A DNA stretch of 64,000 nt from Halosimplex salinum (lineage in GTDB: Archaea > Halobacteriota > Halobacteria > Halobacteriales > Haloarculaceae). Position 1 is the first letter of the stretch; every line of letters starts with the position of its first letter. Shown in pieces: positions 20,735 through 42,121 of the stretch. The position numbers and the translations under genes are program-made. The stretch lies in NCBI RefSeq assembly GCF_003730195.1, contig NZ_QWGG01000008.1, positions 124,969 to 188,968 of the forward strand. Direction: 5' to 3'. Below the pieces are notes generated by a model, which did not search any database, had not been told where the DNA came from, and saw only the letters and a program-made list of their open reading frames with translations.

Positions 20735-21670
20735 ATGAGACTGGATGAGTCGACGGTCCTCGTCACCGGTGGGGCAGGCTTCGTCGGATCGCATCTGACC
20801 GAGCGACTCGCCGACCGCGGCACGGAACTCGTCGTCGTCGACGACCTCTTCGCCGGTCGACGGGAGTACGTGCCGGACGACGCGACGTTCTTCGAACAGG
20901 ACGTGCGGTCGGACGCCTTCGCCGAGACGGTTCGGGAGACGGACCCGGACGGGATCGTCCACCTCGCGGCGATACATCACATCCCGTACTGCAACGCGAA
21001 CCCCGAGGCGGCGTTCGAAGTGAACACGATGGGGACGCGGAATCTGCTCGCCGCGGCCGAGGACCTCGACGACCTCGAGCAGGTGGTCTTCGCGTCGACG
21101 GCGGCGGTGTACGAACCCGAGGACGGACCGCACCGCGAGACTGACGAGCCGGGGCCGATCGACATCTACGGACGGACCAAGCTCGTCGGCGAGGACCTCG
21201 TCGAACAGTTCACCACGAACACCGGTGTGCCCGCGGCGAGCGCGCGCCTGTTCAACGTGTACGGAACGAACGAGACGAACGAACACCTCATCCCGGCCAT
21301 CCTGGACCAGCTCCGGGACGGGTCGCATGCAGTGGAGCTCGGGAACCTCTCGCCGGCCCGCGATTTCGTCCACGTCACCGACGTCGCCGACGCGCTCGTC
21401 GCGCTCCTCACGGAGTTCGACGCCGACTACCGCGCGTACAACGTCGGCACGGGCACCGAACACACAGTTCGTGAAGTCGTCGAACACACCGAGGCGGCGC
21501 TGGGCGAACCGATCGAGATATCCCAGGCCGAGGAACGCGTCCGCGAGTCGGACCGACCTCACCTCTGCCCGTCGACCGAGCGCATCGAACGCGAGATCGG
21601 CTGGACGCCGGACGTCGAGTTCACAGACGGGCTCCGGGAGTTGCTCGAGGCCGAGGGGATCAGGACGTGA
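20735..21670 (+). CDS. NAD-dependent nucleotide-sugar epimerase/dehydratase (extended SDR)
   Basis: 311 residues. Rossmann motif GGAGFVGSHL (G-x2-G-x2-G) at about residues 13-20, ASTAAVYE carrying the catalytic Ser/Thr, and IYGRTKLVGEDL with the Y-x3-K pair. ARLFNVYGTNETNEHLIP and ARDFVHVTDVADAL are typical of GalE/WbpP-like enzymes. It would interconvert a UDP- or dTDP-sugar for the local transferases. A TATA-like AATAGAATAAAATA stretch lies about 30 bases before the ATG. Its stop overlaps the start of the next gene (GTGA). Confidence 0.92.
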   Translation: MRLDESTVLVTGGAGFVGSHLTERLADRGTELVVVDDLFAGRREYVPDDATFFEQDVRSDAFAETVRETDPDGIVHLAAIHHIPYCNANPEAAFEVNTMGTRNLLAAAEDLDDLEQVVFASTAAVYEPEDGPHRETDEPGPIDIYGRTKLVGEDLVEQFTTNTGVPAASARLFNVYGTNETNEHLIPAILDQLRDGSHAVELGNLSPARDFVHVTDVADALVALLTEFDADYRAYNVGTGTEHTVREVVEHTEAALGEPIEISQAEERVRESDRPHLCPSTERIEREIGWTPDVEFTDGLRELLEAEGIRT

Positions 21671-26214: not shown

Positions 26215-27447
26215 ATGGGGAGTTCTCGCGGTCCCGGAGCGGGCAGTTCCGAGGCGGGCGGTTCGTCCCCCCTCGCGTCTCTGGACGCCGAACAGACCGC
26301 GATTCTCGACTGTTTGCGGAGACAGATCGACACCGGTTCGGGTCGGCTGGAAGCCGCGTCCGACACGGCACTCGACTGGGACCGACTCGAGGAACTGGCG
26401 CGCAGACACCGCGTTCGACCCATCGCGTATCACGTCCGCAGCGAGCACCACTCGGACGGCGTCCCGCGGGACAGACTCGGTCAGTGGACGGAACAGCTCG
26501 AACGCAACACCAAGCGGAACCTCCAGTTGTCCGCGGAGCTGTGTGCACTGCTCGAAGCGTTCGACGAGCGTGGCGTTCGCGCGCTCCCGTACAAGGGACC
26601 CGCCGTCGCGGCCGAGGCGTACGGGGACGTCTCGGCCCGCGAGTTCGGTGACCTGGACGTCATCATCTCGAAACCCGATTTCGAGGCGGCCAAACGAGTG
26701 CTCCGGGACAGGGGGTACGAGATCCAGTACGAGTCGCCGACGACGGACGGACTGTCCCGGGCTCAGGAGTCACTCGTCCTCCAGTTCGGCCGCGGATTCG
26801 AGTTCGTCAGCGAGGACCGGCGCGTGTCGGTCGACCTCCACTGGCGCTTTCTCCCGCCACGCTCCTCGTTCCCGGTCGACTTCGACGACGTCTGGGCCCG
26901 GCGACAGACGGTGTCGGTCGCCGGCAGGGACGTCCCGAAGCTCTCGACGGAGGACACGGTGCTCCTGCTCTGTGTCCACGGAACTCGACACGGTCTCCAG
27001 TTGCTCCGCGGCGTGTGCGACCTCGGGGCGCTGATCGAACGATCCGAGATCGACTGGGCGCAGGTCTCCCGTCGCGCCTCCCGCCTCGGCTGTGAGCGAC
27101 GGGTCGGGATCGGTATCAAGGTGGCCCGCGAGCTCCTCGCAGTCGACGTTCCCGACGAGGTCGTCGACCGGCTGGAGTCCGACCCCGTCGTCGCCGACCT
27201 CGTCGAACAGCTGTACGACTGGCTGTTCGACGCCGAACACGACTCCAGGGACGACCCCAGGTTCAAGTACCGGATGCACGAGCGGCGCCGAGACCGACTC
27301 ACGTTCCTGATCCGGTGGACCTTCTACCCGCATCAGAAGGAGATCGAACTGGTCTCACTGCCCGAGTCGCTCGCCGTGCTCTACTACCCGTTGCGGCCGC
27401 TCCGGCTGCTCGGGGAAGCCAGCACGCGACTGCTCCCCGGGACGTAG
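26215..27447 (+). CDS. NTP_transf_5-type nucleotidyltransferase (lasso tailoring protein N)
   Basis: 410 residues of the uncharacterised nucleotidyltransferase family that accompanies lasso and capsule loci. The core LPYKGPAVAAEAYGDVSAREFGDLDVIISKPDFEAAKRVLRDRGYEI has the GDLDVII motif with the metal aspartates, and VDLHWRFLPP provides the third acidic strand. As I recall, in Bacillales lasso clusters a homologue acts after the peptide kinase and further modifies the phosphorylated C-terminal Ser; the same order (N, D, K) is seen here. ATG at 26215 is chosen because residues before it look non-coding. No membrane segment. It is the first gene of the plus-strand arm of the cluster. Confidence 0.88.
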   Translation: MGSSRGPGAGSSEAGGSSPLASLDAEQTAILDCLRRQIDTGSGRLEAASDTALDWDRLEELARRHRVRPIAYHVRSEHHSDGVPRDRLGQWTEQLERNTKRNLQLSAELCALLEAFDERGVRALPYKGPAVAAEAYGDVSAREFGDLDVIISKPDFEAAKRVLRDRGYEIQYESPTTDGLSRAQESLVLQFGRGFEFVSEDRRVSVDLHWRFLPPRSSFPVDFDDVWARRQTVSVAGRDVPKLSTEDTVLLLCVHGTRHGLQLLRGVCDLGALIERSEIDWAQVSRRASRLGCERRVGIGIKVARELLAVDVPDEVVDRLESDPVVADLVEQLYDWLFDAEHDSRDDPRFKYRMHERRRDRLTFLIRWTFYPHQKEIELVSLPESLAVLYYPLRPLRLLGEASTRLLPGT

Positions 27448-27669
27448 TCCGGGACGAGACCGAGCGGGGGCGTCGCTCCGGCCACCCGTAAGAACTATCT
27501 TTTCTGCGACAGGACGACACGGTATCCGGGTGGACCGAAGCGTCACGAGCGGGCTCAGTCGCCCACACGAACCGTGTCCGTCGCGTCGGGCAGTCGTTCG
27601 GGCAGCAACGCCGACCGAGCGACCTGACCGCGGCGGCGTCACAGCGACGGACACCGGACGGTGGGACGG

Positions 27670-29451
27670 ATGAGCGTCGGCCGTGACGAGAAGTTCGCCG
27701 CGCTCCGGGAGGCGGTCACGTACAGGCCGAAACTCGGGGCGGTGATCGTCGCACTGAGTCTGTTCACCGCGCTCCTGGAGGGCGTCGGCGTGGGGTTCAT
27801 CCTCCCCGTCGTCGAGTTCGCACAGTCGACTCCGTCGACAGCGGAAGCCGACGGGCTGCTGGGGCTGTTCGTCCGGGCGTACGCGCTGCTCGACGTCCCG
27901 TTCAGCCTGGAGTACCTGATCGCGGGCGCGTCGGCCGTCGTGTTCGTCCGGTTCACGACGAGTTTCGTCGTCGGCTGGTTACGGGCCGTCCTGAACACCA
28001 GCTATCAGCGGTCGTTGCGACAGCAACTGTTCGAACGCATCGCGTACGCGCCGGTCACGTACATCGACGACGAAGGGTCCGACGACCTGCTCAACAGCAT
28101 CGTCACGGAAGCGCACCGGTCGGGCGGCGCCGCCGCCGCCGTCTTCACCGTCGTCGACATCGCGCTTCGCGGGCTCATCTACCTCGCCATCGCCTTCGTC
28201 ATCTCGCCGCGGTTGACGCTCGTCGCTCTCGTCGGACTCGCTGCGAGCACGCTGTTCGTCCGGTTCGTCCTCGAACCGGCCTACGCCGTCGGCGACGAGG
28301 TCGCCGGCCTGAACAGCCGGATCCAGACCGTCGCACAGACCGCGATCCAGGGCGCCCGCGACGTCCGCCTGTTCAACCTGCGGTCCGAACAGGTCGAGGA
28401 GATGCGGGAGACGCTCGACGAGTTCGTCGACGTGCGGGTCAGGTACCTCCGCAACAAGACCGCGCTCGGCAACTTCAACCAGCTCACGAACGCGCTGGTC
28501 GTGTTCGGCCTCGTCTACGTGGGGATCAGGCTCACGGCGCTCTCTATCGCCGAGATCGGCGTGTTCCTCGTCGCGGTCTACCGGCTGTCGCCGGTGGCGA
28601 CGCAACTCAACGAGACCGTGTACATGATCGGCGGCCAGCTGCCCCACCTCGTCAGAGTCCAGGCTCGGCTGGACGAACTCGACGCGACCGCCGAAAACAC
28701 GACCGCGGGCGGCGAGCCAGTCGACTCCGTCGACCGCCTGGCGTTCGAGAACGTCCGGTTCGGCTACGACGGGGACGACCGGGTGCTCCGGGGAGTCACG
28801 TTCGACCTCGAACGGGGAGAACACGTCGCGCTCGTCGGCCAGTCGGGAGCGGGCAAGTCCACAGTGGTGTCTCTGCTCGGCCGGTTACAGACCCCCGACT
28901 CCGGTCAGATACTCGCCGACGGGACGCCCATCGACGCGTTCGATCTCACCCAGTGGCGTGAACGGCTCGCGGTGGTCCGGCAGAACCCATACATCTTCGA
29001 CACGACGCTCCGGGAGAACGTCACGGTCGGCCGTCGAACCGCCTCGCAGCGCGAGATCGAGCACGCCTGCGAGATCGCACAGGTCACGGAGTTTCTCGAC
29101 GAGCTCCCCGAGGGGTACGAGACGGAACTCGGCGAGGACGGCGTCCGCCTGTCGGGCGGACAGAAGCAGCGAGTGGCTCTCGCACGCGCGTTGCTGAAAG
29201 ACGCAGACGTGCTCGTGCTCGACGAGGCCACCAGCGAACTCGACTCGAACATCGAACAGCGGGTTCACGACAACATCGACGAGGTGGAGGACCGGTACGC
29301 GACTATCAGTATCGCGCATCGGCTCTCGACGGCGGCGGACGCCGACAGGATCTACACCCTCGTCGACGGGACAGTCGCCGAAGCCGGCACCCACGACGAG
29401 CTGGTCGAGAGCGGCGGTGTGTACGCGACCCTCTACGCGACACAGAGCTGA
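27670..29451 (+). CDS. ABC exporter, fused membrane and ATPase domains (lasso transporter D)
   Basis: 593 residues from the ATG at 27670 (a GTG three codons earlier is possible). Residues 1-330 are a six-helix type IV exporter membrane domain; the ATPase has Walker A GQSGAGKSTVVSLLG, Q-loop RQNPYIFD, signature LSGGQKQRVALARAL, Walker B VLVLDEATSELD and the switch His in SIAHRLST, so it should be active. Half-transporters of this kind export mature lasso peptide and give self-protection. No peptidase C39 domain is present, as expected since leader removal is by B2. Confidence 0.9.
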   Translation: MSVGRDEKFAALREAVTYRPKLGAVIVALSLFTALLEGVGVGFILPVVEFAQSTPSTAEADGLLGLFVRAYALLDVPFSLEYLIAGASAVVFVRFTTSFVVGWLRAVLNTSYQRSLRQQLFERIAYAPVTYIDDEGSDDLLNSIVTEAHRSGGAAAAVFTVVDIALRGLIYLAIAFVISPRLTLVALVGLAASTLFVRFVLEPAYAVGDEVAGLNSRIQTVAQTAIQGARDVRLFNLRSEQVEEMRETLDEFVDVRVRYLRNKTALGNFNQLTNALVVFGLVYVGIRLTALSIAEIGVFLVAVYRLSPVATQLNETVYMIGGQLPHLVRVQARLDELDATAENTTAGGEPVDSVDRLAFENVRFGYDGDDRVLRGVTFDLERGEHVALVGQSGAGKSTVVSLLGRLQTPDSGQILADGTPIDAFDLTQWRERLAVVRQNPYIFDTTLRENVTVGRRTASQREIEHACEIAQVTEFLDELPEGYETELGEDGVRLSGGQKQRVALARALLKDADVLVLDEATSELDSNIEQRVHDNIDEVEDRYATISIAHRLSTAADADRIYTLVDGTVAEAGTHDELVESGGVYATLYATQS

Positions 29452-29581
29452 GTCGCGTCTCGCACGCGTCGTTCCCCCTCGGACAGACCGCGCTCCGGCG
29501 CCGCCCCGGCAGGGAATGGTAAAGTAACCATTAAGAGGGACAGCTGTATTTTCGAGATAACGACCGGAGCAGTCGCATTCC

Positions 29582-30469
29582 ATGTACCACTACGCTGCGT
29601 ACGGGCTGAGCATCCAGTCGGCGTTCGAACTCCCGGAGTTACCGGCGGTCGACGGGGCGCCAGCGCCGGACGTCACTATCAGAGACGACGCGGTCGAAGC
29701 GGTGCCGCGTTCCGTCGACGCGTTCGGTGAGTTCCGCGTCCAGGCCGAACCGGGGGTCGCCCGACTGTCCTACGAGTCCGTCGGTACGTTTCTCGTCGAA
29801 TCGGGCGAACGGGTGACGTTCGACCCGGTCGCGGCCGACACGCTGGACGACCCGACCGTTCGTCGACTCCTCGAGAAAGAGATACTGGGGCTGGCGCTCC
29901 ATCAGCGCGACCGGCTGGTGCTCCACGCCAGTGCCGTCTCCGTCGACGGCGAAGCCGTGCTGTTCCTGGGCGAACAGGGCGCCGGGAAGTCGACGACCGC
30001 CGCCGCGTTCCACCAGGCCGGGCACGACGTCCTCGAGGACGACATGGTCGTGATCCGGACTGACGGCGAGGTCCCGACGGTCGCGCCGGGCGTCCCACAG
30101 ATCCGGCTCGAACCCGACTGCGCCGACGCGATCGGTATCGAACAGACCGACGAGTTCCCGGACGTCGAGCAGGTCGACAAGGTGCTGAAGCGACTCGATT
30201 CGACGCCGGACCCGGCGCCGCTCGCGCGATGTTACGTGCTCCGGCGCGACGGGCCGCTCGCCGTCTCGGACCTGTCGTTGCAGGACACGTTTCTCGAGCT
30301 GATATCCCAGACCTTCGCGCGCGGAGTGCTGTCCGACACGAACGCCGCGGACACGCACTTCGAGCAGTGCTCGGATATCGTCGAGACGACGCCGTTCCGG
30401 GAACTCCAGTACCCCGAAACGGTGTCGCGACTCCCGTCGGTGGTCGACCGAGTGACCGACGAGCTGTGA
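29582..30469 (+). CDS. HPr-kinase-like peptide kinase (lasso tailoring protein K)
   Basis: 295 residues. After an N-terminal beta domain comes LVLHASAVSVDGEAVLFLGEQGAGKSTTAAAFHQAGHDVLEDDMVVI: the HAS motif (His115), a P-loop (Gly130 to Thr138, Lys136) and an acidic Walker-B-like LEDD. This is the HPr kinase/PEP carboxykinase-like fold of lasso kinases such as that of paeninodin, which phosphorylates a C-terminal Ser of the precursor. Both precursors here end Gly-Ser-(Ile/Val)-Phe, so Ser49 is the natural candidate, although it is third from the end rather than last. TATA-like AT-rich sequence lies about 30-50 bases upstream. Confidence 0.87.
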   Translation: MYHYAAYGLSIQSAFELPELPAVDGAPAPDVTIRDDAVEAVPRSVDAFGEFRVQAEPGVARLSYESVGTFLVESGERVTFDPVAADTLDDPTVRRLLEKEILGLALHQRDRLVLHASAVSVDGEAVLFLGEQGAGKSTTAAAFHQAGHDVLEDDMVVIRTDGEVPTVAPGVPQIRLEPDCADAIGIEQTDEFPDVEQVDKVLKRLDSTPDPAPLARCYVLRRDGPLAVSDLSLQDTFLELISQTFARGVLSDTNAADTHFEQCSDIVETTPFRELQYPETVSRLPSVVDRVTDEL

Positions 30470-30502
30470 CGGCGGCGGCGTCGGGACCGCCGACGACCGC
30501 CT

Positions 30503-30543
30503 GCACGGAGCCGTCGGCCGCTCGCACGGAGCCGTCGGCCGCT
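30503..30543. repeat. 20-bp direct repeat, two copies
   Basis: GCACGGAGCCGTCGGCCGCT occurs at 30503-30522 and again at 30524-30543, separated by one base. It sits between the kinase stop and the precursor genes that converge on it. May be a recent slippage duplication; a terminator role is possible. Confidence 0.85.
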
Positions 30544-30713
30544 GGCCCGAAGTGCTGTCGAACGTCACGCCCGGCGGGCGCTGTGGCGGCCACCTCGTCC
30601 TGCGCCGACCGACGTACCTGCCGGTCTCGGACTGGGTGGCCGAAAATCGCGGGAACGGCTGGTGCGTCCCCACTGGTGTTCCGCAGACGGGCCGACTCCG
30701 CCGTCCACTGGCC

Positions 30714-30869
30714 CTAGAAAACGGACCCGGTGAGCGGCGTCGCACCGGAGTACTCGTCGGTGTTGTCACCGACCTTGTTGGTACCGCTCCCCGTCCGCGT
30801 GATCTGTTCGACCGTGCCGTGTCTCTGGACGACCGGCGTCCTGTACGACCGTCGGGTCGGTTTCGCCAT
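30714..30869 (-). CDS. Lasso-peptide precursor A2
   Basis: 51 residues. The leader has Tyr9, Pro12, Gly18 and Thr24 in YRTPVVQRHGTVEQITRT, matching the B1-recognition pattern Y-x2-P-x5-G-x5-T. The core follows: GSGTNKVGD then NTDEYSGATPLTGSVF. Asp35 could close a ring with Gly27 (9 residues), Ser28 (8 residues) or Gly29 (7 residues). Ser28 would leave Thr at position -2, the usual leader end, while Gly is the commonest first residue, so the cleavage site is open. It starts 4 bases after the stop of A1, in one transcript. It is 19/25 identical to A1 from Gly27 on and has exactly the same length. Confidence 0.9.
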   Translation of the reverse strand: MAKPTRRSYRTPVVQRHGTVEQITRTGSGTNKVGDNTDEYSGATPLTGSVF

Positions 30870-30873
30870 GGGA

Positions 30874-31029
30874 TCAGAATATCGACCCGGTGAGCGGGGT
30901 CGTGTTCGAGTATTCGTCCGTGCTGTCCCCCTGCTTGTTGTTACCGCTACCCGTCTCGGTGATCTCCTCGACCGAACCGTGTTCGTTGATCTGCGGTGCC
31001 TCGTACCCGTGACTGTCAGCATCTGACAT
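30874..31029 (-). CDS. Lasso-peptide precursor A1
   Basis: 51 residues. Leader YEAPQINEHGSVEEITET (Tyr9, Pro12, Gly18, Thr24, Thr26) and core GSGNNKQGD followed by STDEYSNTTPLTGSIF. Asp35 is the only acidic residue at ring distance from Gly27/Ser28/Gly29; Tyr40 and Phe51 are bulky residues that could act as plugs holding the threaded tail. The ATG at 31029 is about 25 bases from a TATA-like TTTTTTAACA, so the mRNA is probably leaderless. Positions varying between A1 and A2 are conservative or in the loop, suggesting selection on both peptides. Convergent with the kinase gene and downstream of the cyclase. Confidence 0.91.
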   Translation of the reverse strand: MSDADSHGYEAPQINEHGSVEEITETGSGNNKQGDSTDEYSNTTPLTGSIF

Positions 31030-31045
31030 TGATCGTCGTTATGAG

Positions 31046-31062
31046 TTAACATGTTAAAAAAG
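31046..31062 (-). promoter_or_regulatory. Promoter of the precursor genes with palindrome TTAACATGTTAA
   Basis: On the minus strand, CTTTTTTAACA lies 20-30 bases upstream of the A1 ATG, the right distance for a TATA box of a leaderless transcript. It overlaps a perfect 12-base palindrome (31046-31057), a plausible operator. The precursors therefore seem to be transcribed separately from the cyclase gene, which would allow excess substrate. Confidence 0.6.
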
Positions 31063-31179
31063 TTGTCCCGGCAGGTCTGATTCGGGCCGCAGAGCGCGAT
31101 ACGCCGGCGATTCGCAGCTCGCTGGGACGTCGATGGTAATTGATCCGACGTTCACGATACGAACGTGTCGCGATTCACG

Positions 31180-33117
31180 CTACCGAACGTCGTCGTTCGT
31201 CGCAACGGTGGAGCGGGGGGTCGTCGCGTCGGCCGAAGCCACGCGGTCTCGCTCCCCGCGTTCCTCGAGCCAGACGTACAGCGAGAGGGCTCGCCAGATC
31301 GGCTTCGGGTCTTCGGACGTGACGTCCCGGTCGAACCGGTCGTAGGACTCGCGGAGCGCGTCCACGTCGACGTACGTCGCGAGTCGGCCCGGGTCCGACA
31401 GCATCCGTCGAACGTGCTCGTCTTCCGCGGCGAGCGCGTTCCTGAACCCCTCGTCGAGCATGGCCTTCCAGGGTCGCCACTGAATCTTGTCGGGCAGGAG
31501 GTCGCCGAGCGCCCGGCGAGCGATCGAGCGCGTGTACCCGTCCGAGAGGTGTTGCTCGGGCGGCATGGCGAGCGAGAACTCGACCAGTCGAACGTCGGTG
31601 AACGGGTGACGTGGTTCGACGCCGAACAGCGCGTGTAACTGGTCGACCGTCTCGAACGTGGCCGTGATGTGCCCCGAGAGCAGCGACCGGCGCTGCCACC
31701 TGCGGGCGCTGCGACGGAGCACCGAACCGGTGTTCTGCAGCGACTTGTATCGCCCCTGAAGCCCGTACTCGTCGACGAACTCGGGGTTCACCGTCGGGTT
31801 CACCGCCTCCAGTAACACGGGGTCGCCTCGGAGTCGCTGATACGTCCGCTCGACGGGATCCGGAACGAGGTTCGCCAGCGCCATCGACTTGAACAGGCGC
31901 GGGAACGGCGCCCCCGTCACGTCGCTCATCTCACGGAGCGTCCTGTAGAGCCGGAGCCAGTGGCCGGTGCGGAGCATCTGCGGGAGCCAGCCGAACCCGT
32001 AGTCGATGGCGCTGTCGCCGAGGGCGCCGCTGAGGTGGACGCCGACCTCGTCGTCCCGGATCCGCCGGAGCTTCTGCCACTTCCCGAAGTGCATGACGTT
32101 GTGCGCCGGTTCGTCGTAGTACGGGAGCCACTCGTCGACGTCGACGAGCGTCCCCACACCGTCGAGATAGACGTACCGCGGGACGATCCCCGGTCGGTCG
32201 GTCAGCGTCTCGATGAACTCCCGCTCGTCGCTGGTCGGCGACTCGTCGTAGACGTTCGAGTACGTGTACAGCGGCTCGTCCGACGGCAGCAGGTCCCGCG
32301 CCACGGCCGTGACCGCCGACGAGTCGAGACCGCCGCTGAGGTCCGAACCGACCGATCCATCGGTCCGGAGGCGACAGTCGACGGCCTGTTCGAGCAGTTC
32401 GCGGAACCGCCGTTCGTAGGCCACGTCGGACTCCAGACTGACCGTCCGGGTCGGGTCCAGGTCCCAGTACTGCCACGTTCGAGCCTCGGACGCGTCGATG
32501 CGCATCGCGTGTGCGGGCGGCAGTCGACGGATCGCCTCGTAGTACGTGTTCTCCTTGTCTTCCCACGTGTTCAACAGGAAGTCGCCGATCTTCAGGTCGT
32601 CGAGCGTCCCGGGGACGAACGGGAGCGCGAGGAGCGCCTTCGCCTCGGAGGCGGCGGCGAACCCGCCCTCGCCCTCGTGATAGTACAGCGGCTTGACGCC
32701 GAAGTGGTCCCGAGCACAGAACACCGACTGCTCGTTCGCGTCCCAGACGACGAACGCGAACGCGCCGACGAGGTGGTCGACGCAGTGTTCGCCCCACTCC
32801 CGGTAGGCCGCTGCGAGCAGTTGACTGTCGGGGACCTGACCGGGCGGGTCGACGATCCGGAGGGTCTCCAGTAGCTCGTCGCGATTGTCGATGCGTGCGT
32901 CCGCAGAGACGACGAGCCCCCGGTCGCGAGACGGCTGGTCGTCGAAGCGTCCTTCCGGTGTGGTCCGTAGCTGCTGGTGGCCGAGCCCGACGCGGTCGTC
33001 CAGCCAGGCGTCCTGCCCGTCCGGTCCGCGGTGGTCGAGCGTGTCCAGCGCCCTCGTCAGGACGTCCCGGTCGAGGCTTCCACGGCCACGGTCGAACAGG
33101 CAGAGTATCCCGCTCAT
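31180..33117 (-). CDS. Asparagine-synthetase-like lasso cyclase (C protein)
   Basis: 645 residues. N-terminal Ntn-type glutaminase-like domain starts MSGILCLFDRG: the Cys2 nucleophile of true AsnB is Ser2, so glutamine hydrolysis is probably lost, as in lasso cyclases. The synthetase domain has the pyrophosphate loop SDLSGGLDSSAVTAVA (Ser261 to Ser267), so it can adenylate a carboxylate; the substrate would be Asp35 of the precursors, followed by attack by the core N-terminus to form the macrolactam. C-terminal motifs (LFGVEPRHPFTDVRLVEFSLAMPPEQ, DLLPDKIQWRPWKAML) are typical of the family. Its ATG overlaps the stop of a 41-aa gene. Confidence 0.92.
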   Translation of the reverse strand: MSGILCLFDRGRGSLDRDVLTRALDTLDHRGPDGQDAWLDDRVGLGHQQLRTTPEGRFDDQPSRDRGLVVSADARIDNRDELLETLRIVDPPGQVPDSQLLAAAYREWGEHCVDHLVGAFAFVVWDANEQSVFCARDHFGVKPLYYHEGEGGFAAASEAKALLALPFVPGTLDDLKIGDFLLNTWEDKENTYYEAIRRLPPAHAMRIDASEARTWQYWDLDPTRTVSLESDVAYERRFRELLEQAVDCRLRTDGSVGSDLSGGLDSSAVTAVARDLLPSDEPLYTYSNVYDESPTSDEREFIETLTDRPGIVPRYVYLDGVGTLVDVDEWLPYYDEPAHNVMHFGKWQKLRRIRDDEVGVHLSGALGDSAIDYGFGWLPQMLRTGHWLRLYRTLREMSDVTGAPFPRLFKSMALANLVPDPVERTYQRLRGDPVLLEAVNPTVNPEFVDEYGLQGRYKSLQNTGSVLRRSARRWQRRSLLSGHITATFETVDQLHALFGVEPRHPFTDVRLVEFSLAMPPEQHLSDGYTRSIARRALGDLLPDKIQWRPWKAMLDEGFRNALAAEDEHVRRMLSDPGRLATYVDVDALRESYDRFDRDVTSEDPKPIWRALSLYVWLEERGERDRVASADATTPRSTVATNDDVR

Positions 33118-33239
33118 GGTTCGCCGTCGCCGGGCGGCCGTGACGGTTCGTCCCCCTCGACGACCGTCCGGTCACGGAGCCACGTTCCCCCGAGGCCCGT
33201 TCGGGACCGAACGGCGATGATATCGGTTTGTATTCCCAT
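33114..33239 (-). CDS. 41-aa gene between B1 and the cyclase
   Basis: ATG at 33239, 12 bases after the PqqD-type stop, and TGA overlapping the cyclase ATG (ATGA). The peptide begins MGIQTDIIAVRSRTGLGGTW and has a charged, Pro/Gly-rich end. No Y-x2-P leader pattern, so it is not a third precursor. The tight packing suggests it is translated, perhaps only to couple cyclase expression to B1, or as the remnant of a linker between them. Confidence 0.5.
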   Translation of the reverse strand: MGIQTDIIAVRSRTGLGGTWLRDRTVVEGDEPSRPPGDGEP

Positions 33240-33251
33240 TCGACTACTCCG

Positions 33252-33542
33252 TCAGATGTCGCTGTCGACCTCGACGAGCCCGTGCTCCGCCATCTCGGCG
33301 AGCGTGTCCTCGAGGTCCCGTTCGCACTGTTCACGGTCGACGTCGTACCGCGAGAGAATCGCCTCCCTGAGTTCGGACACAGTGGCGGCGGTTTCGAGAC
33401 GCTCCCACACGAACGTCGCGGTCTCGTTGAACCCGTAGTAGGTCCCGGACTCCGTCTCGAGCATGACCGCCTCCCCGTCGACGGTCGTCGCGAGCACTGT
33501 CTCCGAGCGTTCCACCCCTGTCGAATCTGAGAAGGTAATCAC
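33252..33542 (-). CDS. PqqD-type RiPP recognition element (lasso B1)
   Basis: 96 residues starting at GTG. It has the winged-helix RRE layout: three N-terminal strands (VLATTVDGEAVMLETESGTYYGFNETATFVWERLE) then helices (SELREAILSRYDVDREQCERDLEDTLAEMAEHGLVEV). PqqD-like B1 proteins bind the leader through Tyr and Pro of the YxxP motif, present in both precursors, and present it to B2 and C. A TATA box (CTTTATAC on this strand, 33580-33587) sits about 40 bases upstream, so this is the first gene of the B1-orf41-C transcript. Confidence 0.92.
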   Translation of the reverse strand: MITFSDSTGVERSETVLATTVDGEAVMLETESGTYYGFNETATFVWERLETAATVSELREAILSRYDVDREQCERDLEDTLAEMAEHGLVEVDSDI

Positions 33543-33579
33543 GTGTATACCCCTAATTGTCCGTGATAGATCCGCCGCA

Positions 33580-33587
33580 GTATAAAG
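33580..33587 (-). promoter_or_regulatory. TATA box of the B1-orf41-cyclase operon
   Basis: CTTTATAC on the minus strand, about 40 bases upstream of the B1 GTG, giving an expected 5-prime leader of roughly 10-15 bases. Confidence 0.6.
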
Positions 33588-33642
33588 GTCAGGTCTCTAA
33601 CCGGTACACACAATACGGTGTGAGGGAAAGTTCGATCCGTCA

Positions 33643-34248
33643 ATGTTGCCATGGGGGCATCTCGCCGTCGGCTATCTGTTGTACTCAGGAGGAACTCGGC
33701 TGTGGCATCGGCGGTCGCCGGACGACGCGCCGACGCTCCTGGCACTGCTCGGGACACAGGCGCCGGACCTCGTCGACAAACCGCTGAACTGGTGGTTAGC
33801 GGTCTTCGACGGCCGTGGGATCGGACACTCGCTCCTGACGACCGTCCCGGTCTGTGCGATGGTCTACCTCTTCGCGCGACGCCGCGGGCGTGGCGAGTGG
33901 GGCGCAGCGTTCGGATTCGGCGTCCTCACGCACCTGTTCGCGGACGCGTTCTACCCGGTCCTTCGCGGGGCGTCGAGCCTCGACGCACCGTATCTCCTGT
34001 GGCCGCTCCGCGAGGCGCCCACCTACCCCTCGGAGAACGTGATGGACCACGTGCTGCGAGTCGTCGTTCACTTCTCCGCTCTCAGGCACCGGGCGCCGGT
34101 CGACATCCTGACCGACAGGTTCGTCATCCAGGTGTTACTGGTCCCGCTCGTCGTGGGTATCTGGGCACTCGACGGGTTCCCTGGTCTCCCTGACCGCGAC
34201 CCGTCTCCCGGCGGCGACAGCACGAACGACTGGATGGAGAAGTGGTGA
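33643..34248 (+). CDS. Membrane-bound metal-dependent hydrolase (YdjM/DUF457-like)
   Basis: 201 residues with about four membrane helices. MLPWGHLAVGYLLYS starts with the His, GTQAPDLVDKPLNW gives the D-x-x-DK pair, IGHSLLTT and THLFADAF (H-x3-D) supply the rest of the metal site of this phospholipase-C-like membrane family. Cellular role unknown. It lies between B1 and B2 of the lasso cluster, on the B2 strand, but the family is widespread in haloarchaea outside such clusters, so it may be a bystander. Confidence 0.82.
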   Translation: MLPWGHLAVGYLLYSGGTRLWHRRSPDDAPTLLALLGTQAPDLVDKPLNWWLAVFDGRGIGHSLLTTVPVCAMVYLFARRRGRGEWGAAFGFGVLTHLFADAFYPVLRGASSLDAPYLLWPLREAPTYPSENVMDHVLRVVVHFSALRHRAPVDILTDRFVIQVLLVPLVVGIWALDGFPGLPDRDPSPGGDSTNDWMEKW

Positions 34249-34385
34249 CCGGGACGCGAGTGACAGTGACGTAGTCGCGGCCGTGGTAGTCCTCGCGTGA
34301 GAGCGCGTCGACGTATCACGGGCCCTCAGCGAGTGGGAACGAGTGGATTCGAGTCGGTCAGCGGTGGTCGGTCAGCGGTGGCCGT

Positions 34386-34613
34386 TCACTCGTTGAGATA
34401 CCCGAGGGATTCGAGTCGGTCCCGGACTTCCTGCTCCTCGACGTCCTCGAAGTCCCCGTCGCCGGCCTCCGTCTCGACCCGGTGGAGCACCTCCTCCAGC
34501 ACGTACGCGATGTACTCCCCGGACGATTCGAACTCCGTCCGCGAGAGACGTTCCTCGACCTGGTCGACGACCTCCGTCGGGAGCTCGACGGCCTGCATCT
34601 GTTCTGCGCTCAT
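34386..34613 (-). CDS. Small ribbon-helix-helix-like protein
   Basis: 75 residues: AVELPTEVVDQVEERLSRTEFESSGEYIAYVLEEVLHRVE matches the strand-helix-helix order of CopG/Arc-type dimers with a short acidic linker, then EEQEVRDRLESLGYLNE. The last segment repeats the C-terminal L-x-x-LGY tail of the sulfatase-fold proteins in this window. A DNA-binding regulator is likely but unproven. It faces away from B2 and could control the divergent unit starting at 34722. Confidence 0.72.
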   Translation of the reverse strand: MSAEQMQAVELPTEVVDQVEERLSRTEFESSGEYIAYVLEEVLHRVETEAGDGDFEDVEEQEVRDRLESLGYLNE

Positions 34614-34721
34614 GTGTGAAAGATGTGTCAGGAGAAGGCCCGTACACGAACATAACAGTTCCGGTGCCCCGGCGGCCGGCGACTGGATTTATGTCGGTCG
34701 GCGAGAAGGGGACGGTAACGA

Positions 34722-34919
34722 ATGCCCTTCGCAGACCACCGAACGTCCCCGACTCGGGTCGCTTCGACCGGGGCGTCGCTCTCGACACGCTCCGGTGACC
34801 GGCGGGTCCGTCACACAGCGGCGGAGGACCCCGCGACCCACGGGTCGGACCGGCACCGTCGTGACCCGCTCGTCGAACCGGCCGCCGAAGTGGACCGCAG
34901 TCGCCACGAACAGCCGTAG
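34722..34919 (+). CDS. Possible 65-aa gene immediately upstream of B2
   Basis: ATG at 34722 lies about 30 bases after a TATA-like GATTTATG (34686-34693) and the TAG ends one base before the B2 ATG. Third codon positions are GC-rich as in real genes here, but the product (MPFADHRTSPTRVAS onwards) is Arg/His/Ser-rich with no recognisable feature or lasso leader motif. It may be a true small gene, or just the 5-prime leader of the B2 transcript. Confidence 0.35.
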   Translation: MPFADHRTSPTRVASTGASLSTRSGDRRVRHTAAEDPATHGSDRHRRDPLVEPAAEVDRSRHEQP

Positions 34920-34920
34920 A

Positions 34921-35361
34921 ATGGGGACCGTCGCTCGATTGCGCGCGCTCTCCCGGGGGGATTACTTGCGCCTGTTCGCGGCGAGCGGCCTGCTCGTCGT
35001 CGCCCGAGTCGGGCTTTCGCTCTGGTCGCTCCACGGACTGCGAACCCTCCTCGTTCGAGTGGCCAGACGCGTGACCGTTCCGGGGTCACCCACGCCGCTC
35101 CGGGTCGCGTGGGCCGTCTCGACCGCTGACAGACGGCTCCCCGGGTCACGGACGTGCCTGATGCGCTCCGTGGCCACCGAGACGTTGTTGCGGCTGTACG
35201 GGTACACGCCGACGCACCGTCTCGGCGTCGACAGAGAGGGGTCCGACAGCATCGAGGCACACAGCTGGATCGAACTCGACGGCGACGTCCTCATCGGCGG
35301 TCAGCCGGACCTCTCCCGGTTCGACACGTTACCGCCACTGAACGAACGTGAACGTCCGTAA
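34921..35361 (+). CDS. Transglutaminase-like leader peptidase (lasso B2)
   Basis: 146 residues, the usual B2 length. The N-terminal helix region is followed by LPGSRTCLMRSVATETLLRLYG with the catalytic Cys79 and EAHSWIELDGDVLIGG with His114; Asp120 or Asp122 completes the Cys-His-Asp triad. This protease cuts the leader from the B1-bound precursor so that the cyclase can close the ring. It lies 1.4 kb from B1 on the opposite strand with two genes between, an unusual split for B1/B2. Confidence 0.9.
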   Translation: MGTVARLRALSRGDYLRLFAASGLLVVARVGLSLWSLHGLRTLLVRVARRVTVPGSPTPLRVAWAVSTADRRLPGSRTCLMRSVATETLLRLYGYTPTHRLGVDREGSDSIEAHSWIELDGDVLIGGQPDLSRFDTLPPLNERERP

Positions 35362-40757: not shown

Positions 40758-40874
40758 ATGACTGACCGAGACGCCGTCGTCGGAACGCGACGGGGTGTTT
40801 CTGTTGGGGCAACCGGACAGAGAACCGACGCCGCGACCTCGTCCGTGGACAGTCGGCGGACCGATTCGGTATGA
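40758..40874 (+). CDS. 38-aa frame coupled to the integrase
   Basis: ATG at 40758, 6 bases after the wHTH stop, ending in TGA that overlaps the integrase ATG. The product (MTDRDAVVGTRRGVSVGATG then a Ser/Thr/Arg tail) has no known family. The spacing supports translation, but the composition is not convincing. Confidence 0.35.
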   Translation: MTDRDAVVGTRRGVSVGATGQRTDAATSSVDSRRTDSV

Positions 40875-42121
40875 TCGACGACGACCCCGTTCGGGACGGC
40901 GGCGATCGGCCGCTGGCGAGTTCGTTCGATCGGTACCTCCAGGACAAGGGGAAGGGTCGCGCCGGCGACGGCGGGAACTACCGCCGGAACGCCGCTCGCG
41001 AGCTCCGGCGCTTCGAAGCGTGGGCGGCCGGAGACCGGGGGAGCGACGACTGGACCGGGATCACACCTGCCGACACCGACCGACCGCCGGCCTTCACCGA
41101 CCTCGACGAACGGGTGTTCCGCGCGTACGCCCGTCACCTCGCCGGCGACCGCGGCCTCAAGCAGAACACCGTCAAGACCTACTACGCGTACGTTTCGGCG
41201 TGGTGTGGCTGGTGTGTCAACGAGGGATACCTGGAGGCCCACTACGCGCAACGGGCCAGCGCGATGTCGCCCCTCCCCGAGGACGACGGTCGCAAGCCGG
41301 GCGACCAGCAGGCCTGGACGCCGGAGCAGCGACACGCCCTCACGCGCTACGTGGACGACGAGGCCCGGAGCGCCATCGAGGCGTTCACGACGCTGCCCGA
41401 AGACACGAACGCGCTCGAGAGACAGCGAGCGCGCTACGCGGCGCTGAAAGCGGCACGTGACAGGGCACTCGTCTTCGTTCTCGCGTACACGGCTGTCCGG
41501 GTTGGCGAACTCCTCCGCGACCCGAACGACCCGCGACGGCGCGGCGTCCGCTGGGGAGAGGTCGACGTCGACGAGGGGCGGATGGACGTCTATCGAAAGA
41601 AACAGCAGTGGGACGCGGCCAGCCTCCCGGACCCGGTGGGACACCCGATCCGGAGCTACCGCAGACTCGTCGACCCGCCGAGCGAGCGGTGGCCGGTGTT
41701 CCCGACCTTCGACCGCCGGTCGCTCGCGAGTCTGGTCGACGAGGAACTGGCCGACCGCGGACTCGACCCGGAGGCGATCGCCGCCCGGCGGGACGAGCAC
41801 GCTCGCGACCTGTTGCTCGCGCTCGAAGCGGACGTCCGCCCGCCGTCGATGACGACCGACGGCGCCCGGTCGGTCCTGCGACGCCTCTCCGACGAGGCCG
41901 GCCTCACCGTCGACCACCCGAAACACGACTACCTCGCGCCACACGGCGGTCGGCGCGGGATGGGCGAGGTGCTCGTCCGCGCGTTCGGGTACACCGTCGC
42001 CGCGCGCTACCTCGACAACTCGGAACAGATGGTCCGCGAACGCTACTCGCACATCGAGGCGGGCGAACTCGGCGACGTGGCGACCGAAGCGCTGGCGGAC
42101 GTGAGACACCCCTCGGAGTGA
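40871..42121 (+). CDS. Tyrosine recombinase / integrase-like protein
   Basis: 416 residues. N-terminal SAM-like core-binding domain (residues 15-125: SFDRYLQDKGKGRAGDGGNY, FRAYARHLAGDRGLKQNTVKTYYAYVSAWCGWCVNEG). The catalytic domain shows Arg in YTAVRVGELLRDP, the H-x2-R box as APHGGRRGMGE (with extra Arg), and Tyr in MVRERYSHIEAGEL. Haloarchaeal proteins of this type may act in site-specific recombination of a local element or, as with XerC/D relatives, in chromosome maintenance. No tRNA attachment site or second boundary was found in the window. Confidence 0.85.
   Translation: MIDDDPVRDGGDRPLASSFDRYLQDKGKGRAGDGGNYRRNAARELRRFEAWAAGDRGSDDWTGITPADTDRPPAFTDLDERVFRAYARHLAGDRGLKQNTVKTYYAYVSAWCGWCVNEGYLEAHYAQRASAMSPLPEDDGRKPGDQQAWTPEQRHALTRYVDDEARSAIEAFTTLPEDTNALERQRARYAALKAARDRALVFVLAYTAVRVGELLRDPNDPRRRGVRWGEVDVDEGRMDVYRKKQQWDAASLPDPVGHPIRSYRRLVDPPSERWPVFPTFDRRSLASLVDEELADRGLDPEAIAARRDEHARDLLLALEADVRPPSMTTDGARSVLRRLSDEAGLTVDHPKHDYLAPHGGRRGMGEVLVRAFGYTVAARYLDNSEQMVRERYSHIEAGELGDVATEALADVRHPSE

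What the first reader, a model, noticed from the sequence alone, without database searches (positions are those of the whole stretch)
26215..35361. Apparently complete lasso-peptide biosynthesis cluster in a haloarchaeon
Seen: PqqD-type B1 (33252-33542), transglutaminase-like B2 with Cys79/His114 (34921-35361), AsnB-like cyclase with Ser2 replacing the glutaminase Cys (31180-33117), ABC exporter (27670-29451), HPr-kinase-like kinase (29582-30469), nucleotidyltransferase (26215-27447) and two tandem precursors. Known: B1, B2 and C are the minimal lasso machinery; kinase and nucleotidyltransferase accompany it in some Bacillales. Inference: an intact, tailored lasso system in an archaeon that lives in saturated salt. 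Archaeal lasso peptides are little described.
Basis: partly seen in the sequence, partly recalled or inferred. Interest (0 to 1): 0.97.

Follow-up and report, generated by a model that had tools for sequence, protein, structure and literature searches.

The report
Haloarchaeal lasso peptide gene cluster
A salt-loving archaeon carries what looks like a complete, intact set of genes for making two knotted (lasso) peptides that are probably also phosphate-tagged, and comparison across its relatives shows that the tagging enzymes are more constant than the enzyme that ties the knot.

Summary
B1, B2, C, two precursors, an HprK-like kinase, a PF14907 nucleotidyltransferase and an ABC exporter are all intact at the stated places. 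C scores 603 bits against the lasso-cyclase model NF033535 (cut-off 525). It falls in a well-supported 17-member haloarchaeal clade and lacks the glutaminase Cys that AsnB paralogues keep. The precursors (A1 30874-31029, A2 30714-30869, minus strand) belong to a family of 24 sequences with fixed leader geometry, an invariant core Asp, and a Gly-Ser near the C-terminus in 23 of 24.

(1) Archaeal lasso clusters are already known in silico. In 391 Halobacteria genomes, B2 is over cut-off in 31 and C in 16. (2) Kinase and nucleotidyltransferase occur in exactly the same 31 genomes as B2 (plus one orphan nucleotidyltransferase), so tailoring looks obligate and cyclisation optional. (3) The window's precursors carry a spacer after the leader Thr, so the usual cut does not put an Asp at core position 7-9; the core boundary is unresolved. 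(4) The likely phospho-acceptor Ser is not C-terminal, so this is not a paeninodin. A new variant of a known kind. No product, ring or phosphorylation is shown here.

The parts
26215..27447 (+). PF14907 (NTP_transf_5) nucleotidyltransferase-like protein, 410 aa; homologue of the proposed PsmN-type tailoring enzyme
   Evidence: Pfam 226 bits, cut-off 31; strong homologues in the same 31 of 391 genomes as B2 plus one
27670..29451 (+). ABC exporter, fused membrane and ATPase domains (MsbA-like)
   Evidence: ABC_membrane and ABC_tran; 44-64% identical exporter in most related clusters
29582..30469 (+). HprK-like peptide kinase, 295 aa, His115-Lys136-Asp153-Asp154
   Evidence: HprK_rel_A 41.7 bits and Hpr_kinase_C 29 bits, both under cut-off; HKDD residues in 33-34 of 34 homologues; model matches HprK/P and PEPCK folds; same 31 of 391 genomes as B2
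30714..30869 (-). precursor A2, MAKPTRRSYRTPVVQRHGTVEQITRTGSGTNKVGDNTDEYSGATPLTGSVF
   Evidence: lasso leader model NF033521 18.1 bits (cut-off 19); member of the 24-sequence family
30874..31029 (-). precursor A1, MSDADSHGYEAPQINEHGSVEEITETGSGNNKQGDSTDEYSNTTPLTGSIF
   Evidence: NF033521 25.5 bits, cut-off 19; member of the 24-sequence family
31053..31061 (-). AT-rich TATA-like box about 24-32 bases before the A1 start
   Evidence: read by eye from the sequence printed; inference
31180..33117 (-). lasso macrolactam cyclase C, 645 aa, Ser2 in place of glutaminase Cys, intact SGGLDSS ATP motif
   Evidence: NF033535 603 bits, cut-off 525; haloarchaeal lasso C clade 99/97
33252..33542 (-). B1, PqqD-type RiPP recognition element (GTG start)
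   Evidence: PqqD 76 bits; best NCBIfam models are lasso B1 models, NF033536 62.6 bits (cut-off 80) and NF033530 50.2 (cut-off 70); best PDB match TbiB1, 7e-13
33581..33586 (-). TTTATA box about 40 bases before the B1 start
   Evidence: read by eye; inference
33643..34248 (+). YdjM-family membrane protein; possible, unproven extra component
   Evidence: Pfam YdjM 51.9 bits; a YdjM gene lies at the cluster in 7 of 9 lasso genomes checked, though genomes hold 6-13 copies
34921..35361 (+). B2 leader peptidase, transglutaminase-like, Cys79/His114
   Evidence: NF033537 93.9 bits, cut-off 33; Cys and His invariant in 28 of 28

Best explanation
This is most likely a working lasso-peptide pathway with phosphate tailoring. 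B1 binds the YxxP leader of A1 and A2. The HprK-like kinase phosphorylates the precursor, most likely on the family-conserved Ser49 of the Gly-Ser near the C-terminus. The PF14907 protein further decorates that phosphate, perhaps with sugar as reported for PsmN in pseudomycoidin. B2 cuts off the leader. C activates a core Asp with ATP and joins it to the new N-terminus, closing a ring round the threaded tail. The ABC protein exports the product. Shown here: the genes, their family membership, their catalytic residues and their co-inheritance. Inferred by homology: every catalytic step. The family alignment points to Asp38 as ring Asp with a 9-residue ring starting at residue 30, but this start is not the position that the Thr(-2) rule gives.
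For: C over the lasso-cyclase cut-off (603 against 525), B2 over its cut-off (93.9 against 33) and A1 leader over its cut-off. C lies in a haloarchaeal lasso clade of 17 rows (99/97), apart from 13 haloarchaeal AsnB-like proteins, 12 of which keep Cys2. The clade members lack Cys2. B2 Cys79/His114 28 of 28 and kinase HKDD 33-34 of 34. B1 is closest in the PDB to lasso B1 proteins such as TbiB1 and TfuB1. 24 precursors with constant Y-to-T spacing of 15, invariant Y, P, G, T, K and D, and Gly-Ser in 23 of 24. Kinase and nucleotidyltransferase in the same 31 of 391 genomes as B2. Kinase, nucleotidyltransferase and B1 roles follow characterised bacterial systems (PMC9266682, PMC10368454, PMC13381572).
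Against: No product is known. After the Thr(-2) cut that both the Thr and the YxxP spacing predict, the first Asp is at core position 10 and the family Asp at 13, outside the 7-9 range that defines lasso rings. B1 is under the curated cut-offs of both lasso B1 models. The kinase is under every curated cut-off and its presumed acceptor Ser is not at the C-terminus. Two cyclase-less sister clusters have a precursor that ends in Asp with no Ser or Thr in the core although the kinase is present, which weakens the assumption that this kinase family always acts on a peptide Ser. The C structure prediction was too poor to use.
Confidence: 0.82

Rival explanations
1. The cluster makes a linear phosphorylated and decorated peptide, as in the Bacillota LPP family, and C does something other than lasso closure.
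For: Cyclase-less haloarchaeal clusters with the same B1, B2, kinase and nucleotidyltransferase exist; a linear polyphosphorylated RiPP family sharing much of this enzyme set is established in Bacillota (PMC13381572); the window's core does not fit the 7-9 ring rule after the usual cut.
Against: The window has an intact C over the lasso cut-off with the ATP motif; related precursors with the same core and no spacer put an acid at position 8 or 9.
Confidence: 0.1
2. It is a surface-glycan locus: C is an AsnB/XrtA-type amidotransferase and the PqqD and HprK-like proteins belong to an exosortase-type system, not to a RiPP.
For: Neighbours are epimerase, sulfatase, DUF2206, GT2 and sugar NTP-transferase genes; C also matches TIGR03108 and TIGR01536, and the kinase's best NCBIfam model is HprK_rel_A.
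Against: C scores 207 bits against TIGR03108 (cut-off 817) but 603 against the lasso cyclase model; it lacks the glutaminase Cys; B2 and a lasso leader are over curated cut-offs. Bacillota paeninodin clusters also lie in capsule loci (PMC13381572), so the setting does not separate the two.
Confidence: 0.04
3. A decayed or unexpressed relic of a lasso cluster.
For: The cluster is accessory: a genome of the same genus (G161) lacks B2, kinase and nucleotidyltransferase. Expression was not tested.
Against: No frameshift or stop in any gene, catalytic residues kept, and two precursors that have diverged with the family motifs intact.
Confidence: 0.04

Closest known systems
Paeninodin and pseudomycoidin type phosphorylated lasso peptides (Bacillota)
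   Same: Discrete B1 and B2, C, HprK-like kinase with HKDD, nucleotidyltransferase in pseudomycoidin, ABC exporter; location in polysaccharide loci (PMC9266682, PMC13381572)
   Different: Precursors end in Phe, not in the phosphorylated C-terminal Ser; leader is YxxP, not the WxxP favoured by paeninodin B1; C is about 28% identical to the C of a Priestia paeninodin-family cluster
Bsf lasso peptide of Bradymonas
   Same: Kinase with B1-assisted phosphorylation of a precursor Ser that is not at the C-terminus (PMC10368454)
   Different: Bsf is phosphorylated on Ser3 inside a Gly1-Asp8 ring with Ile at -2; here the family-conserved Ser is near the C-terminus and the leader Thr is kept
Linear polyphosphorylated peptides, LPP (Bacillota)
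   Same: RRE, HprK-like kinase, NTP transferase and MsbA-like exporter (PMC13381572); resembles the cyclase-less haloarchaeal sister clusters
   Different: LPP uses an SpI-like signal peptidase and has no cyclase; the window has B2 and C
Other haloarchaeal clusters: Halopiger xanaduensis pHALXA01, Natronoglomus mannanivorans, Halosimplex carlsbadense, Candidatus Halobonum tyrrellensis, Halorubrum kocurii
   Same: Largely the same enzyme set, same precursor family, C 54-59% identical
   Different: Gene order differs; the window's precursors have the longest Thr-to-core spacer (+4)

Membership tests
Lasso peptide cluster (B1/B2/C type) | macrolactam cyclase C with ATP motif | tested here: met
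   NF033535 603 bits, cut-off 525; SGGLDSS present
Lasso peptide cluster (B1/B2/C type) | B2 transglutaminase-like leader peptidase with Cys and His | tested here: met
   NF033537 93.9 bits, cut-off 33; C79 and H114 invariant
Lasso peptide cluster (B1/B2/C type) | PqqD-like B1 | tested here: met
   Pfam PqqD 76 bits; best specific models are lasso B1, though under their cut-offs; best PDB match TbiB1
Lasso peptide cluster (B1/B2/C type) | precursor with YxxP leader and Thr 15 residues after the Tyr | tested here: met
   both precursors; NF033521 over cut-off for A1, just under for A2
Lasso peptide cluster (B1/B2/C type) | Asp or Glu at core position 7-9 after the Thr(-2) cut | tested here: inconclusive
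   Thr24(-2) cut gives Asp10 and Asp13; other cuts give G27-D35, S28-D35 or N30-D38. Spacer-free homologues give 8 or 9
Lasso peptide cluster (B1/B2/C type) | threaded ring held by an isopeptide bond | not testable with these tools
   needs the purified product
Paeninodin family | HprK-like kinase with His-Lys-Asp-Asp | tested here: met
   H115, K136, D153, D154
Paeninodin family | conserved C-terminal Ser in the precursor | tested here: not met
   both end in Phe; Ser is third from the end
Paeninodin family | WxxP leader motif | tested here: not met
   YxxP in all 24 precursors
LPP family | no macrolactam cyclase | tested here: not met
   intact C in the window
LPP family | SpI-like signal peptidase | not tested
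   no search for SpI was made
AsnB / XrtA amidotransferase | N-terminal catalytic Cys2 for glutamine | tested here: not met
   Ser2; 12 of 13 haloarchaeal AsnB-like proteins used for comparison keep Cys2

The most novel reading that the evidence does not exclude
In the subclade to which the window belongs, the leader really is cut one residue after the conserved Thr, as both the Thr(-2) rule and the fixed YxxP spacing predict, and the cyclase closes rings of 10 to 13 residues, larger than the 7-9 residue rings of known lasso peptides.
Probability: 0.1. Interest if true: 0.85.

Novelty: new variant of a known kind. Interest (0 to 1): 0.6.

Why it matters
I found no report of a characterised archaeal lasso peptide in the library searched. 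This cluster and its relatives give a defined archaeal precursor family with testable predictions: which Asp closes the ring, where the leader is cut, and which Ser is phosphorylated. The exact co-inheritance of B2, kinase and nucleotidyltransferase, with the cyclase optional, suggests that in haloarchaea the conserved chemistry is the phosphate-based decoration rather than the knot. That bears on how linear phosphopeptide RiPPs and lasso peptides are related.

Tried and rejected
Structure prediction of C: mean pLDDT 45, not used. Kinase model: pLDDT 65, HprK/P and PEPCK matches with low TM-scores, used only as weak support. Sequence search of B2 against the PDB: no match. An EPS/XrtA amidotransferase reading was considered and rejected on model scores and the missing Cys2. 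YdjM as a proven component was rejected: it is common in these genomes (6-13 copies), although one sits at the cluster in 7 of 9 lasso genomes checked. A paeninodin label was rejected because the C-terminal Ser and WxxP features fail. Two papers on paeninodin and pseudomycoidin were not held, so their results are taken from a review (PMC9266682). Bacterial C proteins in the tree sit on long branches and their starts were poorly set, so no donor lineage is claimed.
Full report
WHAT IS THERE. The window is a 64-kb stretch of contig C27 of a 5.07-Mb haloarchaeal genome. Nucleotidyltransferase 26215-27447 matches PF14907 with 226 bits. Exporter 27670-29451 has both ABC domains. Kinase 29582-30469 matches HprK-type models weakly, below cut-offs. 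C 31180-33117 matches NF033535, the lasso isopeptide-forming cyclase, with 603 bits against a cut-off of 525. B1 33252-33542 is PqqD-like. B2 34921-35361 matches NF033537 with 93.9 bits against 33. The two precursors, for which no coordinates were given, are the 51-residue ORFs at 30874-31029 and 30714-30869 on the minus strand. The leader pattern occurs only at these two places in the window and never in 60 simulated windows.

IS C REALLY A LASSO CYCLASE. The obvious rival is an asparagine synthetase or exopolysaccharide amidotransferase, since the neighbours are epimerase, sulfatase, GT2 and sugar-nucleotide genes. C scores 207 bits for the XrtA amidotransferase model (cut-off 817) and just under the cut-off for AsnB (250.5 against 267.1). 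In a maximum-likelihood tree it lies in a 17-member haloarchaeal clade of cluster-associated C proteins (support 99/97), apart from haloarchaeal AsnB-like proteins. The clade members start MSG or MSA, so they lack the nucleophilic Cys2, whereas 12 of 13 AsnB-like comparison proteins start MCGI. The SGGxDS ATP motif is intact. B1's nearest solved structures are lasso B1 proteins TbiB1 and TfuB1 and two recent lasso or PqqD family chaperones.

HOW COMMON IT IS. Searches of 391 Halobacteria genomes found B2 over cut-off in 31 and C over cut-off in 16. A direct scan of genome contigs returned Natronoglomus, Halosimplex carlsbadense, Candidatus Halobonum and Halorubrum kocurii with C 54-59% identical. 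Halopiger xanaduensis has the cluster on a plasmid, where B2 is annotated as lasso B2 but the precursor is not annotated in the gene table held. Genome-mining papers already list lassopeptide clusters in archaea (PMC12144867) and a haloarchaeal draft genome with B1, B2 and kinase resembling the Halopiger cluster (PMC10093198). So the setting is unusual but not new.

CO-INHERITANCE. I compared the genome lists by hand. The 31 genomes with B2 are exactly the 31 with a kinase homologue at E of about 1e-12 or better, and exactly the 31, plus G188, with PF14907 above 140 bits. C is nested within this set: 16 over cut-off, and G002 with a weaker one of 320 bits. A genome of the same genus (G161) has no B2, kinase or PF14907. 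The genomes are not independent, since many belong to one genus (g3), but the set spans many genera of several families. The plain reading is that kinase and nucleotidyltransferase are obligate partners of B2 in haloarchaea and the cyclase is optional.

CYCLASE-LESS SISTERS. Seven loci without C were read (L083-L089). They carry B1, B2 and nucleotidyltransferase, mostly with kinase and exporter close by; L083 belongs to G002, whose weak C is about 20 kb away with its own kinase. In genus g3 the only candidate precursor is a peptide of 30-32 residues, typically MKEYETPSVETYGTVEEKTNWWDHDDGYGKWS; another locus has six short precursors. They resemble the linear polyphosphorylated peptides of Bacillota (PMC13381572), but with B2 in the cluster; SpI was not searched for. 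Two of them end in Asp and have no Ser or Thr in the core, so what the kinase does there is unexplained.

THE PRECURSOR FAMILY. Twenty-four precursors were aligned. Tyr-to-Thr spacing is 15 in every one. The core reads (N/D)KxGxxxD(E/Q)(Y/W/F), with few exceptions, with K and D invariant, and a Gly-Ser near the end in 23 of 24; the exception, L078, ends in Ser. In about half of them the usual cut one residue after Thr puts an acid at core position 8 or 9, a normal lasso ring. In the others one to four extra residues lie between the Thr and the Lys; the window has four. The spacer types follow the C tree: the spacer precursors belong to one subclade and to the outgroup L078, the spacer-free ones to the other subclade, with one +1 exception, L036a. 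For the window the standard cut gives Asp at 10 and 13. Other starts give G27-D35 (9), S28-D35 (8, with Thr at -2) or N30-D38 (9). The family Asp is D38, and in the L080 precursors it is the only acid available, so N30-D38 (T30-D38 in A2) is the family-consistent choice; none is proven.

PHOSPHORYLATION. The kinase keeps the His-Lys-Asp-Asp residues reported as essential in ThcoK (PMC9266682). Paeninodin kinases act on a C-terminal Ser, BsfK and LppK on Ser3 of the core (PMC9266682, PMC10368454, PMC13381572). The window precursors end in Phe; the conserved Ser is Ser49. If the leader is cut after residue 25, Ser28 would be Ser3 of both cores, so a Bsf-like site is a live alternative.

MECHANISM AND CONFIDENCE. 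Most likely order, by analogy: B1 binds leader, kinase phosphorylates, nucleotidyltransferase decorates, B2 cuts, C cyclises, exporter secretes. Genes, families, residues and co-inheritance are shown; all reactions are inferred. Function of the product is unknown; location in a glycan locus, as for Bacillota paeninodins, hints at a surface or biofilm role, which is speculation.

VERDICT. Real, intact, a lasso-peptide cluster of a distinct haloarchaeal subtype: new variant of a known kind.

Noticed in passing
L086 9098-9196, L089 9996-10094, L098-L105: Cyclase-less clusters with B1, B2, kinase and nucleotidyltransferase and an almost invariant 32-residue precursor, MKEYETPSVETYGTVEEKTNWWDHDDGYGKWS: candidate archaeal linear phosphopeptide RiPP.
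   Followed up: partly
L097 1504-1596 and L103 2302-2400: Same precursor type ending in KWD, with no Ser or Thr in the core although the kinase is retained; the kinase substrate there is unexplained.
   Followed up: no
L084 14226-17929: Six short precursors of one family (MTYEKPTLETYGRVESLTQ...), most with a SEP motif, beside a cyclase-less cluster.
   Followed up: no
L036 14875-15033 and L072 5403-5546: A second lasso system in the same loci, with its own C and kinase and a canonical Gly1-Asp8 core with Thr at -2.
   Followed up: partly
window 33643-34248; L036, L038, L078, L094: YdjM-family membrane protein repeatedly next to these clusters; possible immunity or processing role.
   Followed up: partly
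window 20735-21670: NAD-dependent sugar epimerase whose homologues lie near 11 of 17 lasso clusters; may supply the sugar for decoration or just reflect glycan loci.
   Followed up: no
window 40871-42121: Phage-integrase SAM-like ORF near the cluster, consistent with horizontal movement.
   Followed up: no
window 34386-34613 (minus strand): Small acidic 75-residue ORF between B1 and B2, no convincing family match.
   Followed up: no
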